This document shows positions 22,408 through 36,551 of a stretch of DNA of 42,647 nt, piece after piece. The position numbers were made by a program, and so were the translations under genes. Where the stretch lies: positions 1 to 42,647 of IMG/VR virus record IMGVR_UViG_3300046694_000227, one strand, 5' to 3'. The notes beneath the pieces are model-generated. The model saw nothing but the letters and a program-made list of their open reading frames with translations, was not told where the DNA came from and did not search any database. The stretch is from a virus. Every line of letters begins with the position of its first letter. The first letter of the stretch is position 1.

Positions 22408-22958
22408 GGCTGCACCGCCTTGGCCATGGCCAGGTAGTCCGTTTCCCTTTCCGGCGAATAGAAACCAGCCCCCACCACCTCTTCGTGCAGCTTGCGCATA
22501 TCTCCCAGCGCGCACTCCAACATGCGGGCGTGGCTCACGCCGTTGTTCAGACGACCAAGTCCTTTCTGGTCGTAATAGCCTGGGCAGCCGAGAGCGTGAT
22601 CACTGCGAATAGCCATGCTCATGAGTAGGCCGGCGGACGGAGTGACGGGCACAAGCACCTTCCCTTCACGCTCTTTGCGCAGCGCCTCATTCTCGGCCTT
22701 GAGCTGGTCGCACTCGGCCATCAGGTCAGCGCAATCGCCACGCAGCGAGCGGATGGCCCCCATACCCGGGGATTCACGCAAGAGCTCGTTCTCGGCAATG
22801 ATGGCCAGCACAACCTCAGGAGGGAGAGCGTCTTGCAGCGCATCATCAGCTGCATGGAACCGCTCCTGATTTTCGATGCTGCAGCTGTCTTCCAGATAGG
22901 CTTCGTTCGCTGAAATCAAAGCAGCGCACAGCCGCTTCAGTCCGGTGTAGTCGGTCAT
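22404..22958 (-). CDS. Ead/Ea22-like hypothetical protein
   Basis: A 184-aa acidic protein. The N-terminus (YTGLKRLCAALISANEAYLE) and the middle part VLAIIAENELLRESP followed by a coiled coil (ECDQLKAENEALRKEREGK) recall Ead/Ea22-type phage proteins of unknown role. It ends MAKAVQP and overlaps ninB (ATGA). A related protein is encoded at 39218-39664 (shared PEAVLALISESE motif). Confidence 0.65.
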   Translation of the reverse strand: MTDYTGLKRLCAALISANEAYLEDSCSIENQERFHAADDALQDALPPEVVLAIIAENELLRESPGMGAIRSLRGDCADLMAECDQLKAENEALRKEREGKVLVPVTPSAGLLMSMAIRSDHALGCPGYYDQKGLGRLNNGVSHARMLECALGDMRKLHEEVVGAGFYSPERETDYLAMAKAVQP

Positions 22959-23668
22959 GCCCTTTGCTCCGTGTTCTTCCTGCCGAACTTGGCCAGCAGC
23001 TGCGCCCGTGCTGCTGCGCCAGTGGTTGGAACGCCTTGAGTGGACAGCAGTCGTGCTTGGCGCTGGTTGGCGAATTCCTCGGCCCGTTCCAATTCGCTCT
23101 TCTGGCTGTCGTGGCCAATGCCCGCGGCGATCTTCCCGCTCAACGGTTGGTTGGCTTGAGCGCGGCGCAGGATCACTTCGTAGTTGCGGTCGAATCTGGC
23201 GCGAAGGCCCTTGTCTTCCTGTTTTGCCGCTCGTAAATCGAACAGGCCCGTCGCTTCCGCCGCGAGCTTCACCGCTTCATGGCTGTAGGTGCCCATCAGC
23301 GCTTCGAGCCAGGCATCGGCCGGCGCAGGCATGCCGAAGTCTTCAGGGCTCGGCACGCACATGGCGATGAATTCACCAACACTTGGCGCGAAAGGCTTCT
23401 TGAGCTTGCGGCACTTCTGGATACCGAACTCGATCTGCAACAGGGTGCGAATGCCGGCTTCTGCAAACTCCTTGATCCATTCGGCCTTGGCAGAGTCCAG
23501 TGCTTCGGTGGACGGCCACGCTTGGCGCCACGCGGGGAAGATCCCACGGAGGCGACGGAACAGGTCGTTCACCACTTCTGCGGTCTGCGGAGTCACCTGG
23601 AGCGGCTGAGCGTGAACAGCTGGCGGAAGGTTGCCCATGGTCGCCATCAGTTGGTTGGCTGGCTTCAT
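22955..23668 (-). CDS. Replication protein P-like helicase loader
   Basis: A 237-aa protein like lambda P (N-terminal FRRLRGIFPAWRQAWPSTEA, then KAEWIKEFAEAGIRTLLQIEFGIQKCRKLKKPFAPSVGEF), which is the lambda-P/phage replication P pattern. It would bring host DnaB helicase to the initiator at the phage origin. It overlaps both neighbours by 4 bp (ATGA) and follows the O-like gene, the lambda order. Confidence 0.87.
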   Translation of the reverse strand: MKPANQLMATMGNLPPAVHAQPLQVTPQTAEVVNDLFRRLRGIFPAWRQAWPSTEALDSAKAEWIKEFAEAGIRTLLQIEFGIQKCRKLKKPFAPSVGEFIAMCVPSPEDFGMPAPADAWLEALMGTYSHEAVKLAAEATGLFDLRAAKQEDKGLRARFDRNYEVILRRAQANQPLSGKIAAGIGHDSQKSELERAEEFANQRQARLLSTQGVPTTGAAARAQLLAKFGRKNTEQRA

Positions 23669-23952
23669 GGGCTCACCACAAGCCCTTCGGCCCAGGCATT
23701 GCTGTCGAAGTCAGGCTCGACAGGCTGTCGACGCGGCGGGAACTGGCGGACATTGCTGGCCGTCGCGTTATCGCGCTTCACCCACTTCACCAGCAGGCTC
23801 ACCCAGGAGGCCTGAGTCTCGACACGGCCAGAGGCCGAGTAGTGACAGACGAATGCAGCGGTCGCCTCACTGGTGAACTCAGCAACCGGGATTGCCATGC
23901 GCAGCGCGTACGACTTCAGCAGCTTCTGGTCAGGCACCCAGTCGAGGGTCAT
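23665..23952 (-). CDS. DnaT-like DNA-binding domain, C-terminal part of split replication initiator
   Basis: A 95-aa frame starting MTLDWVPDQKLLKSYALRMA, then TSEATAAFVCHYSASGRVET and QASWVSLLVKWVKRDN: the DnaT/PriB-type single-strand-binding domain usually fused to the C-terminus of O-like initiators. The frame stays open upstream of this ATG, back to the pentanucleotide repeat at 24030-24052, and is one repeat unit out of register with the N-terminal gene. It may still be translated by itself; no strong ribosome site is seen. Confidence 0.8.
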   Translation of the reverse strand: MTLDWVPDQKLLKSYALRMAIPVAEFTSEATAAFVCHYSASGRVETQASWVSLLVKWVKRDNATASNVRQFPPRRQPVEPDFDSNAWAEGLVVSP

Positions 23953-24020
23953 TTCGGTTGGTGACTTTGGGTCGACCGAATTTTCCTCACCCGCGTGTAG
24001 AGTGTTGTGTTGATCTTCTC

Positions 24021-24452
24021 CTATTCCCTTCCCTTCCCTTCCCTTCCGTGGTCTACCGGTCGACGATCAGTCGACGACTCCTCGGCGAATTGTTGGCGAA
24101 TGCTCTCCGACTGGTCGTCTAATTCTGATGGTGGTCCGGGGTATTTGAAGTTCTTTTTCTCGATCTTCTGGTGCTTCCAGCCACGGACGTGGAAGTAGTT
24201 CTTCCCGTTCACCCAGTAGCTCTGGATCAGCTCGGCACCCTCTAGCTCACCCAGGAGATTTCTCACCTCTTCGGTGGTGATGTCGTCACCTGGGAACACC
24301 AAGGCCTTGATGGTTCGCGGTGCCAACGGATGGTTGCCGCCGTCATCGCAAAAATTCCAAAGGCCAATGAACAGCAGCCGAGCCATCGGGCGGCAGGACA
24401 TGACCTGCTCGCTCGACCAGAACTCGGGCTTGACGGTACGAATGCGAGCCAT
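24021..24452 (-). CDS. O-like replication initiator, N-terminal DNA-binding part
   Basis: A 143-residue frame beginning MARIRTVKPEFWSSEQVMSC, then ARLLFIGLWNFCDDGGNHPL and HVRGWKHQKIEKKNFKYP: the winged-helix N-terminus of phage O-like initiators, which bind origin iterons. It ends prematurely within a (GGGAA)n run. The start overlaps the Rha stop (TGATG), with AGGGGG 7 nt upstream. Removing one 5-bp repeat would fuse it to the DnaT-like domain, giving a 260-aa initiator. As it stands, the two halves are separate. Confidence 0.82.
   Translation of the reverse strand: MARIRTVKPEFWSSEQVMSCRPMARLLFIGLWNFCDDGGNHPLAPRTIKALVFPGDDITTEEVRNLLGELEGAELIQSYWVNGKNYFHVRGWKHQKIEKKNFKYPGPPSELDDQSESIRQQFAEESSTDRRPVDHGREGKGRE
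24030..24052. repeat. Pentanucleotide repeat (TTCCC)4 inside the initiator gene
   Basis: Four tandem TTCCC units on the plus strand (GGGAA on the coding strand) plus flanking partial units, at 24033-24056 approximately. With four units the frame ends in TAG immediately after; with three the frame continues through the linker into the DnaT-like domain. This is a slippage-prone site that switches the protein between split and fused forms. Confidence 0.85.
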
Positions 24453-25264
24453 CACGCGGCCCCCTTGAGTGCTTTGTCATGAGTGAACAGCCCGTCCCAG
24501 GTCTTCTTCATAGGCAGCTCGCCGGCCAGGTATAGGTCGTACAGGCGCACGGCGCCCTTCTTGAGCAGGACTGGCGTGAAGGAAACGAACGGCTCTTTGC
24601 CGTGGGGAGTGACTTCGTGCTGATGCTCGGTCATGTACTTGTCGCGGGCGTAGGACGCCACACGAAAGCGCAGGCCGGATTTGCTCTCGTTGTAGAGCCA
24701 GTTGCGGCCTTCGAGAAACTTGCCCACCTGCATGACGTTGACCCCATTGAGGCCCTTGCAGAATTGGGTATGCGTCATCCCTTCCTTGAACAGGTTCTCC
24801 ATGGAATGGATCTTCGAGGCCTGGGCTTCGACCTGAATGGACAACTGCAGGCGCTGCTGCTCAGCCTCGAAAGCGAGCTGAATGAGGTCCATGCGGGAGA
24901 GTTCGCGGGGTTGGGCGATCTGCCCTTCCAGCTCCTGCCAGCGGTCCACCAACGCAGCGGTAAATTCAGGGCTGAGCTGAGCAACTACTACGAAGCTGTC
25001 GCGCTTGCAGACCATATACTCGGAAGCCTTGCGGCCGAGGCTGTCGAGGTATTCCCCCATTGGGGGAAGAGCAATCACCGGATTTCCATTCGCGTCGTTC
25101 CGCGCGGAAAGTCGTTCGATGGATTGTTTGACCTTGTCGTGGCGCGAGCCGACCAGTTCGGCAATCTCGCGAGAAGACATAGCGTGTCGCGACACGTTTT
25201 CGGTATTACCAAAAGGTGTCGCGGGCTTTTTGAGGGCCTGTACATCATGGTTAGAGGTATGCAT
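24452..25264 (-). CDS. rha: Rha-family antirepressor with KilAC-type C-terminus
   Basis: A 270-aa protein from ATG 25264 (GAGG 6 nt upstream). The N-terminal Rha domain (MSSREIAELVGSRHDKVKQS, then EYMVCKRDSFVVVAQLSPEF) is followed by a coiled coil and a KilAC-like C-terminus (MTHTQFCKGLNGVNVMQVGK, then RFRVASYARDKYMTEHQHEV). Rha proteins regulate lysogeny in lambdoid phages, often as antirepressors. The peptide TPFGNTENVSR near residue 18-28 is encoded by an inverted repeat that recurs at 33898-33929. Confidence 0.87.
   Translation of the reverse strand: MHTSNHDVQALKKPATPFGNTENVSRHAMSSREIAELVGSRHDKVKQSIERLSARNDANGNPVIALPPMGEYLDSLGRKASEYMVCKRDSFVVVAQLSPEFTAALVDRWQELEGQIAQPRELSRMDLIQLAFEAEQQRLQLSIQVEAQASKIHSMENLFKEGMTHTQFCKGLNGVNVMQVGKFLEGRNWLYNESKSGLRFRVASYARDKYMTEHQHEVTPHGKEPFVSFTPVLLKKGAVRLYDLYLAGELPMKKTWDGLFTHDKALKGAA
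25189..25222. repeat. Inverted repeat within rha, shared with 33898-33929
   Basis: GCGACAC, then one mismatched base and TTTT, a 10-nt loop, AAAA, one mismatched base and GTGTCGC. The gene at 33648-34010 carries the same hairpin with perfect 11-bp arms and an equal 10-nt loop. Both copies encode TPF-x-x-TE-x-VSR. Confidence 0.75.
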
Positions 25265-25300
25265 AATCGGCCTCACAGATGCTTTTGTTGTATGCAGTAG

Positions 25301-26065: not shown

Positions 26066-26131
26066 CATGACCGCCGGTATTGTTAGCAGTCAATACCGGC
26101 GATATTGGTTAAGTAAATACCGTGGGTAATA
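26066..26131. promoter_or_regulatory. OR-like region: three 17-bp operators between cro and cI
   Basis: CATGACCGCCGGTATTG (26066-26082), CAATACCGGCGATATTG (26091-26107) and AAATACCGTGGGTAATA (26115-26131) are variants of CAATACC-N3-GGTATTG. Centre spacing is about 25 and 24 bp, as in lambda. On the minus strand TTGACT (26094-26089) could be the -35 of the cro promoter. On the plus strand TTGGTT (26105-26110) and TAATAA (26127-26132) could form the cI promoter. Two more copies lie at 28180-28221. Confidence 0.85.
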
Positions 26132-34414: not shown

Positions 34415-34493
34415 GACTCGACTCCATTAATGGCAGATGAGCATCACCTATTACTCCTATTCTACGAATCACGCCAGCCGGCGAGGATCCCCT

Positions 34494-36551
34494 ATGTCCG
34501 CACAACAGAAGAAACACCCCTTCGATTTCAAAACTCAATACGGACTCGGCTTCAGCACTCAGGACGATGAGATCGTTGTCGACTTCTTCTGCGGTGGCGG
34601 CGGTGCCGGTACCGGGTTGGAGATGGGGCTGGGCCGCGCGGTGAACGTCGCGAAGAACCACAGCCCTCAAGCAATCAGCATGCACACCGTGAATCACCCG
34701 GGCGCCGTGCACTTCACTACTGACGTGTTCGAAGGTGATCCAGACACCGAGTGCGGCGGTAAGGCCGTGGGCTGGTTCCACATGTCGCCGGACTGCACGC
34801 ATCATAGCCAGGCCGCCGGCGGCCAACCGCGCAAGCGTGAGATCCGGAACCTGTCGTGGATCGGGCTGAAGTGGGCTGGCAAGAAGAAGCCTCGCGTCAT
34901 CAGCCTGGAGAACGTGAAACAGATCCTCCAGTGGGGGCCGCTGATCGCCAAGCGCTGCAAGTCGACCGGCCGCGTGATGAAGCTGGGCGGTGCCATCGCC
35001 GAGCCTGGCGAAGTCGTGCCGGTTCACCAGCAGTTCCTGGTGCCTAACCCGAAACGCCGCGGGCAAACGTGGGCAGTGTTCGTTGCCGAGCTGCAGCGTC
35101 TGGGCTACGCCGTCGAATGGCGGGTCATCAAGGCCTGCGACTTCGGCGCGCCGACCAGCCGCGAGCGCCTGTTCATGATCGCCCGCTGCGATGGACAGCC
35201 GATCGTGTGGCCCGAGCCGACCCACGCGAAGAACCCGGCCAAGGGCCAACAGAAGTGGCGTACCGCCGCCGAGTGCATCGACTGGACTATCCCGAGCAAA
35301 AGCATTTTCAACCGGGCAAAGCCGCTGGCACCCGCCACCCTACGCCGGATTGCCAAGGGCATGAAGAAGTTCGTGATTGATGCGGCTGACCCGTTCATTG
35401 TGCCAATCGCAAACTGGTCGGGCGAAAGCGTCCAGTCTGCCCATGACCCACTGCGCACCGTGACGTCGTGGCCGCGCGGAGGATCGTTCGCGATGGCGAG
35501 CCCGATCATTGCGCCAGCTACACATCATGGCAGCGACCGGATCAACGACCCCCACGCCCCGCTGCCGACCGTCACCTGCGCGAATCGCGGCGAGCTGACG
35601 TTGGTCAGCCCTACCCTGATTCAAACAGGCTACGGAGAGCGCACCGGGCAGGAGCCGCGCGTGCCCGGCCTTGATCAACCACTGGGTACCGTGGTCGCCG
35701 GCGGCGTTAAACATGCACTGGCCGCTGCGCACTTGGTGAAGTTCCGGTTTTCGGACGAAGGCAAGGCGCTCGATGAGCCGCTGCCAACTATCACCAGCGG
35801 CGGCAACTACCAGCGCCCCGCCGGCGCCGCCCACGCCATGGGCATCTCAACAGTGTTCATGGCCCAGATGAATGGCGGCTTTAACACCACGGCAGCCAAA
35901 AGCATCGAGGACCCGATGACCACGGTGACCAACACCGGCAGCCAGCAGCAACTGGTGACCGCCAACCTGGTGCACTTGCGCGGCAACTGCGATGCGCGGG
36001 ACGCCAGCGATCCGTTGCACACCATCAGCGCCGGCGGCACTCACCATGGACTGGTCACTGCTTTCATGGAACGCCAGTTCGGCGCCAGCGTTGGCCAGGG
36101 TGTGGACGAACCAGCACCGACCATAACAGCCGGCGGTGGCGGAAAGAGTTCGCTGGTCGAGCTGCAGCTTTCGCCAGAGGTTGAAGCCGGTGCGCTGCGC
36201 GTCGCGGCATTCCTGATCAGCTACTACGGCACCGAGAACATGAGCGCCGCCGACGCGCCAGCGCCAACCATCACCACCAAGGATCGGCTGGGCCTGGTCA
36301 CCGTCACCATCAAGGGCACGCCGTACGTGATCGTCGACATCTGCCTGCGGATGCTGCAACCGGCCGAGCTGTACAAGGCTCAGGGCTTCCCCGCCGACTA
36401 CATCATCGGCCACGGTGCCGACGGCAAGCCGTTCACCAAAACCCAGCAGGTGCACATGTGCGGCAACAGCGTCAGCCCGCCGCCGATGGCTGCACTGGCA
36501 CGGGCCAACGATCCATGGAGGATCGCTGAGCAAACCTCAAAAGCCGCTTAG
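34494..36551 (+). CDS. DNA cytosine-5 methyltransferase with repeated target-recognition region
   Basis: A 685-aa protein from ATG 34494 (GAGG 7 nt upstream). Motif I is DFFCGGGGAG (30-39), the catalytic motif SPDC (98-101, Cys101, in place of the usual PCQ), ENV at 139-141, TSRERLF near 221-227, and the C-terminal QGFPADY and GNSVSPP motifs (about 630-663). Between about 315 and 595 there are eight copies of D/EPLPTITxGG-like units spaced 33-49 residues apart. It probably protects phage DNA from host restriction. It is larger than most such enzymes (about 330-450 aa), owing to the repeats. Confidence 0.9.
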   Translation: MSAQQKKHPFDFKTQYGLGFSTQDDEIVVDFFCGGGGAGTGLEMGLGRAVNVAKNHSPQAISMHTVNHPGAVHFTTDVFEGDPDTECGGKAVGWFHMSPDCTHHSQAAGGQPRKREIRNLSWIGLKWAGKKKPRVISLENVKQILQWGPLIAKRCKSTGRVMKLGGAIAEPGEVVPVHQQFLVPNPKRRGQTWAVFVAELQRLGYAVEWRVIKACDFGAPTSRERLFMIARCDGQPIVWPEPTHAKNPAKGQQKWRTAAECIDWTIPSKSIFNRAKPLAPATLRRIAKGMKKFVIDAADPFIVPIANWSGESVQSAHDPLRTVTSWPRGGSFAMASPIIAPATHHGSDRINDPHAPLPTVTCANRGELTLVSPTLIQTGYGERTGQEPRVPGLDQPLGTVVAGGVKHALAAAHLVKFRFSDEGKALDEPLPTITSGGNYQRPAGAAHAMGISTVFMAQMNGGFNTTAAKSIEDPMTTVTNTGSQQQLVTANLVHLRGNCDARDASDPLHTISAGGTHHGLVTAFMERQFGASVGQGVDEPAPTITAGGGGKSSLVELQLSPEVEAGALRVAAFLISYYGTENMSAADAPAPTITTKDRLGLVTVTIKGTPYVIVDICLRMLQPAELYKAQGFPADYIIGHGADGKPFTKTQQVHMCGNSVSPPPMAALARANDPWRIAEQTSKAA

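What the first reader, a model, noticed from the sequence alone, without database searches (positions are those of the whole stretch)
24030..24056. Pentanucleotide repeat that splits or fuses the replication initiator
The O-like N-terminal gene ends inside GGGAA repeats (four units on the coding strand). Deleting one 5-bp unit puts it in frame, through a linker with no stop, with the DnaT-like domain that follows, giving a 260-aa initiator. Gain of two units does the same. Unit-length slippage would thus turn phage replication on or off, a contingency switch not usually reported for prophage initiators.
Basis: seen in the sequence. Interest (0 to 1): 0.7.

Follow-up and report, generated by a model that had tools for sequence, protein, structure and literature searches.

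The report
Phage replication origin inside initiator gene
The short GGGAA repeat belongs to what looks like a replication origin hidden inside a prophage's own replication-initiator gene; this copy carries one extra repeat unit that breaks the gene in two, whereas all 97 distinct relatives compared keep it whole, so it looks like a stray mutation or an error rather than an on/off switch.

Summary
A perfect GGGAA tract lies at 24024-24047 on the minus strand. The 143-aa N-terminal part stops right after it, and the DnaT-like part (23665-23952) lies in another frame. Removing one unit gives 260 aa.

The switch is not supported. In 97 of 97 distinct relatives the two parts are one open gene. Only this window is out of frame, by exactly +5 bp. 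Relatives carry 1-4 perfect units, always in frame. Exact-match scans found 32 contigs with the 3-unit allele and none with 2 or with 4 or more.

The repeat is more likely part of a replication origin embedded in the initiator's disordered linker. It follows an 11-bp iteron-like array at 24046-24122 (0 of 5000 shuffles). Fifteen consecutive codons across the tract are almost free of synonymous change in 37 relatives. A 30-mer of at least 90% purine occurs in 22 of 39 diverse initiators but in 0 of 253 neighbouring genes.

The layout resembles the lambda origin, but the iteron type differs and the tract is not A+T-rich. The four-unit allele is either a real slippage mutant or an assembly error; I cannot tell which.

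The parts
24024..24047 (-). GGGAA tandem repeat, 4 full units plus 4 bases (relatives nearest to the window: 3 full units)
   Evidence: TRF; alignment to nearest relatives shows exactly +5 bp
24014..24047 (-). 34-nt almost pure purine strand (one T), proposed strand-asymmetric part of the embedded origin
   Evidence: purine 30-mer 0.97; codons 134-148 almost free of synonymous change in 37 relatives; coordinates
24046..24122 (-). Iteron-like array: seven 11-bp repeats, consensus about (G/T/A)TCG(C/T)CGA followed by three variable bases
   Evidence: lag-11/22/33 identity 0.57/0.56/0.52; 0 of 5000 shuffles and highest score in the window; units listed
24021..24452 (-). N-terminal part of the initiator (143 aa, predicted winged-helix DNA-binding domain), cut off by TAG just after the repeat in this window
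   Evidence: PHROG 1408 replication initiation protein E=9e-38; predicted fold
23665..23952 (-). C-terminal DnaT-like domain of the same initiator, out of frame in this window only
   Evidence: Pfam PF17948 DnaT E=1.3e-11; PHROG 1408 profile positions 193-282; fused in 97 of 97 relatives
22955..23668 (-). P-like helicase loader, start overlapping the end of the initiator gene
   Evidence: Pfam PF06992 E=5e-28; PHROG 109
24452..25276 (-). Upstream antirepressor-like gene (Rha/ANT), same orientation
   Evidence: Pfam PF09669, PHROG 63

Best explanation
The repeat is part of a phage replication origin embedded in the linker-coding segment of a two-domain initiator gene. SHOWN from sequence: (1) the N-terminal domain and the DnaT-like domain are normally one polypeptide of about 260 aa; (2) the linker between them is predicted to be disordered; (3) the DNA of the linker holds an array of 11-bp repeats followed directly by a GGGAA polypurine tract; (4) that DNA is conserved at synonymous sites while the flanking coding sequence is not; (5) initiators with a different N-terminal domain class carry different repeats (21-bp spacing, TAACGTTA) in the same place. 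INFERRED: the N-domain binds the 11-bp repeats, the adjacent purine/pyrimidine-asymmetric tract opens, the DnaT-like ssDNA-binding domain captures one strand, and the neighbouring P-like protein loads the helicase, much as in phage lambda. The repeat's encoding of the linker peptide GREGKG is secondary. The window's extra unit is a +5-bp frameshift (a slippage mutant, or an assembly or sequencing error) that separates the origin-binding domain from the DnaT-like domain and would be expected to impair replication.
For: 97 of 97 relatives are fused and in frame; the window is the only exception. The difference from the nearest relatives is a single 5-bp indel. 32 contigs hold the exact 3-unit allele, 0 hold 2 units, 0 hold 4 or more. 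Synonymous diversity is 0.004 in codons 134-148 against a gene mean of 0.31 (0 of 20000 permutations). The 11-bp array gives 0 of 5000 shuffles; the best lag is 11 or 22 in nearly all sequences that carry this N-domain class, and 21 in most of those with the other class. Purine tract: 22 of 39 initiators against 0 of 253 control ORFs. Two folded domains with linker 111-155 at pLDDT below 50. DnaT ssDNA-binding structures are the best fold matches. A P-like helicase loader lies next door. The lambda precedent, iterons plus a region with almost all purines on one strand inside O, is in PMC5043065; iterons plus AT-rich region inside O also in PMC7466680.
Against: No binding, melting or replication assay was possible. 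The tract is about 53% G, not A+T-rich like the lambda unwinding region. The 11-bp direct repeats differ from lambda's 18-19-bp inverted-repeat iterons. The synonymous constraint could in principle reflect another cis element (an mRNA or transcription signal). Fold matches are weak (best E=0.004).
Confidence: 0.8

Rival explanations
1. Contingency switch: unit-length slippage reversibly turns the initiator, and so prophage replication, on and off.
For: 5-bp units change the frame, and three units give the fused 260-aa form. A 4-unit pentanucleotide (GACGA)4 in H. influenzae hsdM switches 4 to 3 at high rate according to PMC2651432, citing Zaleski 2005, so four units can be enough in some hosts.
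Against: 97 of 97 relatives in frame; no 2-unit or 4-or-more-unit neighbouring alleles among contigs where 32 have 3 units. Unit number varies only with frame kept. The tract's DNA conservation has another explanation.
Confidence: 0.05
2. Assembly or sequencing error (a question only about the extra unit, compatible with the origin reading): the true sequence has three units and an intact initiator.
For: The only out-of-frame case among 98. No other gene was found frameshifted relative to a related record, so the phage otherwise looks intact.
Against: A 24-bp repeat is shorter than ordinary reads and should assemble correctly. The window also has a P-to-H substitution next to the tract, so this stretch differs from relatives in more than the repeat count.
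Confidence: 0.3
3. The two parts are two real genes in this phage, or are joined by programmed ribosomal frameshifting.
For: Each part has its own ATG, and the DnaT-part ATG is conserved in the family (M166 invariant).
Against: No ribosome-binding site precedes the DnaT ATG by inspection. There is no canonical X XXY YYZ slippery heptamer in frame before the TAG. Relatives encode one open frame.
Confidence: 0.03
4. The linker DNA is conserved only because the peptide GREGKGIGEDQHN is needed; there is no origin here.
For: Several linker residues are nearly invariant.
Against: Synonymous positions are frozen on codons used for a minority of their residue in this window (AGG 8% of Arg, GGA 13% of Gly, ATA 10% of Ile). 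The linker is predicted to be disordered. The preceding region has an 11-bp DNA periodicity that is out of step with the 3-bp codon frame. Distant initiators use different purine units, and so different peptides, at the same place.
Confidence: 0.08

Closest known systems
Phage lambda ori within gene O (iterons plus adjacent strand-asymmetric A+T-rich region; PMC5043065, PMC7466680)
   Same: Repeat array next to a region with nearly all purines on one strand, inside the initiator gene, followed by a P-like helicase loader gene.
   Different: 11-bp direct repeats instead of 18-19-bp inverted-repeat iterons; GGGAA polypurine tract instead of A+T-rich; the initiator has no Pfam match for its N-part and ends in a DnaT-like domain.
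RepA-like replication initiators of mycobacteriophages and Streptomyces phages (for example Donovan gp62; compare PMC7157519)
   Same: Homologous N-terminal domain (34-39% identity); short purine-rich tandem repeats inside the gene after the N-domain. PMC7157519 suggests an origin in or next to repA for RepA phages.
   Different: Different repeat unit (GGGGAACA, GGGAACA); no DnaT domain shown here; remote hosts.
DnaT primosomal protein, ssDNA-binding domain (PF17948; PDB 4ou6, 6aeq)
   Same: C-terminal domain matches by profile (E=1.3e-11) and is the best fold match.
   Different: Here fused to an origin-binding domain rather than acting in replication restart.
Pentanucleotide phase-variable locus hsdM of Haemophilus influenzae, (GACGA)4 (PMC2651432)
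   Same: Four-unit pentanucleotide inside a coding sequence whose loss of a unit changes the frame.
   Different: There the alleles vary between strains and a switching rate was estimated; here no ON/OFF variation among 98 sequences apart from this one.

Membership tests
lambda-type intragenic replication origin | Located inside the initiator gene, between its two domains | tested here: met
   Array and tract lie in the predicted disordered linker 111-155
lambda-type intragenic replication origin | Array of repeats that can serve as initiator sites | tested here: met
   11-bp periodic array, 0 of 5000 shuffles; repeat type differs with N-domain class. Binding itself not tested.
lambda-type intragenic replication origin | Iterons are 18-19-bp inverted repeats bound by dimers | tested here: not met
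   Repeats here are 11-bp direct units
lambda-type intragenic replication origin | Adjacent region with purines on one strand | tested here: met
   34-nt tract with one pyrimidine
lambda-type intragenic replication origin | The adjacent region is A+T-rich | tested here: not met
   Tract is about 53% G by direct count of window 24014-24047
lambda-type intragenic replication origin | P-like helicase loader follows the initiator gene | tested here: met
   PF06992, PHROG 109
lambda-type intragenic replication origin | Initiator binds, opens and replicates the DNA | not testable with these tools
   Needs EMSA, melting and plasmid replication assays
SSR contingency (phase-variable) locus | Repeat in a coding sequence with a unit not divisible by three | tested here: met
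SSR contingency (phase-variable) locus | ON and OFF length alleles among related sequences | tested here: not met
   97 of 97 relatives in frame; 0 neighbouring alleles of 2 or of 4 or more units
SSR contingency (phase-variable) locus | Reversible length change within a population | not testable with these tools
   No reads or cultures available
DnaT domain (PF17948) | Profile match above the curated cut-off | tested here: met
   44.4 bits against cut-off 25

The most novel reading that the evidence does not exclude
A broad class of phage initiators from several bacterial phyla carries, inside its own gene, a GC-containing polypurine tandem repeat (GGGAA and variants) that replaces the A+T-rich unwinding element of known origins, opening through strand asymmetry, triplex or G-quadruplex formation and being captured by the fused ssDNA-binding domain. 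The number of repeat units is then under double selection, for origin function and for reading frame.
Probability: 0.3. Interest if true: 0.6.

Novelty: new variant of a known kind. Interest (0 to 1): 0.45.

Why it matters
It gives a simple sequence signature (iteron-like array plus polypurine repeat inside the initiator gene, right after the N-domain) that could locate the replication origin in many temperate phages for which none is known, including phages of Proteobacteria and Actinobacteria. It also shows why an out-of-frame repeat count in such a gene should be read first as a mutation or an error, not as a phase-variable switch. If the tract really is the opening element, it would be an origin that melts at purine repeats rather than at A+T-rich DNA.

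Tried and rejected
Contingency switch: tested on 98 distinct sequences and by three exact-pattern scans; not supported. Two separate genes: rejected because every relative is fused. Programmed -1 frameshift: no canonical slippery heptamer in frame. A generally decayed prophage: comparison with a related 49-kb record found no other clearly frameshifted gene; the other split matches appear to be shadow ORFs opposite the structural genes or short weak matches (judged by strand, not pursued further). DNA search of phage records with the window gene gave only one partial hit. Literature searches for phase-variable phage initiators or polypurine phage origins found nothing on point. No paper in the held library contained the linker peptide.

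Full report
WHAT WAS CHECKED. The window is a 42,647-base virus record. On the minus strand a perfect GGGAA repeat occupies 24024-24047. The N-terminal ORF, starting at 24452, reads through the repeat and stops at TAG 24021-24023. The DnaT-like ORF 23665-23952 lies in another frame, 500 nt downstream of the first start. Removing one 5-bp unit joins them into 260 aa, and adding two units also joins them (265 aa).

WHAT THE GENES ARE. The N-terminal part matches phage replication initiation proteins (PHROG 1408, E=9e-38). The C-terminal part matches the far end of the same PHROG 1408 profile (positions 193-282 of 302) and the Pfam DnaT domain, so the family itself is defined as one protein. Upstream is an antirepressor-like gene, downstream a lambda-P-like helicase loader. 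The window also encodes a CI-like repressor, an integrase, and lambda-like head and tail genes, so it is a temperate phage. The nearest relatives lie in Pseudomonas genomes and in viral contigs.

IS IT A SWITCH? Relatives were collected by matching either part separately, which does not favour fused forms. Of 98 distinct sequences holding both parts, 97 have them in one open frame; the only exception is the window. The nearest relatives (92-95% identical over 820 bp) differ at this place by exactly one missing 5-bp unit. The number of perfect units ranges from 1 to 4 across the family, and the frame is kept every time but here. An exact-pattern scan finds 32 viral contigs with three units in this context, none with two, and none with four or more (the window's own record may be left out of such scans). 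With 0 of 97, the out-of-frame share in relatives is below about 3% (rule of three, ignoring relatedness). A phase-variable locus would show a mixture. Comparison with a related 49-kb record found no other gene clearly broken in the window.

WHAT THE REPEAT IS FOR. Three lines show that the linker DNA is under constraint as DNA. First, codons 134-148 (D-P-G-R-E-G-K-G-I-G-E-D-Q-H-N) are almost free of synonymous change in 37 relatives (mean diversity 0.004 against 0.31 for the gene; 0 of 20,000 permutations), although they use codons that are the minority choice in this phage, such as AGG, GGA and ATA. Second, the 80 bases just before the tract form an 11-bp periodic array (TTAGACGACCA GTCGGAGAGCA TTCGCCAACAA TTCGCCGAGGA GTCGTCGACTG ATCGTCGACCG GTAGACCACGG). 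Identity is 0.57, 0.56 and 0.52 at lags 11, 22 and 33, no shuffle of 5,000 reaches the score, and it is the highest score in the window. In nearly all sequences with this N-domain class the best period is 11 or 22 bp at the same place (lag 11 in 64 and lag 22 in 21 of 98 sequences overall). Most initiators with another N-domain class have 21-bp-spaced TAACGTTA repeats there instead, as expected if the repeats are the binding sites of the cognate N-domain. Third, a 30-mer of at least 90% purine is found in 22 of 39 mutually diverse initiators, including ones from Klebsiella, Stenotrophomonas, Bradyrhizobium, Nitrosomonas, Streptomyces and a Planctomycetota bin, but in none of 253 neighbouring ORFs. 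AlphaFold predicts two folded domains and a low-confidence, presumably disordered linker at residues 111-155, which is the segment that carries these DNA elements. The best structural matches are DnaT domains, including one bound to single-stranded DNA.

MECHANISM. The layout (repeat array, then a tract with nearly all purines on one strand, inside the initiator gene, followed by a P-like helicase loader) is that of the phage lambda origin, whose A+T-rich region is likewise described as having almost all purines in one strand (PMC5043065; iterons and AT-rich region inside O also in PMC7466680). I infer that the N-domain binds the 11-bp repeats, the purine tract opens, and the DnaT-like domain captures a strand. 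Binding, opening and capture are not shown. The window's extra unit would cut the origin-binding domain off from the strand-capturing domain. Whether this allele is a real mutant or an assembly error cannot be settled without reads.

HOW FAR FROM THE KNOWN. It works like the lambda origin but is not filed as a member: the iterons are 11-bp direct repeats and the tract is not A+T-rich. For RepA-like mycobacteriophages an origin in or next to the repA gene has been suggested, with no repeated motifs identified in the intergenic region examined (PMC7157519); one RepA-like gene of the kind that matches our N-domain (phage Donovan) shows purine-rich tandem repeats at the corresponding place. I found no paper describing this polypurine element.

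Noticed in passing
L189, L156, L151, L169, L127, L131, L126, L130, L132, L154 (linker regions): Initiators with a different N-terminal domain class (34-38% identical) share the DnaT half and an EEHNT/DQHNT-like peptide at its border, with TAACGTTA repeats at 21-bp spacing and TTCCTGA-like repeats in place of GGGAA; this suggests modular exchange at the linker.
   Followed up: partly
L099 linker, initiator gene positions about 473-560: Perfect 15-bp repeats (GGGAGAGGAAGGGAA) in tandem in the initiator of a Xenophilus prophage: expansion by a multiple of three that keeps the frame.
   Followed up: no
L257 gene 62 (Mycobacterium phage Donovan) and L258 gene 39 (Streptomyces phage Austintatious): RepA-like initiators of actinobacterial phages carry purine-rich tandem repeats (AGGGGAACAGGGGAACA, GGGAACAGGGAACA) after the N-domain: candidate origins.
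   Followed up: partly
window 24024-24047: The four-unit allele matches the pattern of a four-run G-quadruplex (GGGAAGGGAAGGGAAGGG), which the three-unit relative L002 lacks; a few in-frame relatives (L042, L050, L089, L195) also have it.
   Followed up: partly
window 26070-26122: Two 24-bp imperfect direct repeats (ACCGCCGATATTGGTTAAGTAAAT) just upstream of the CI-like repressor gene; possible operators.
   Followed up: no
window 34437-36551: Large DNA methyltransferase gene (704 aa) in the prophage.
   Followed up: no
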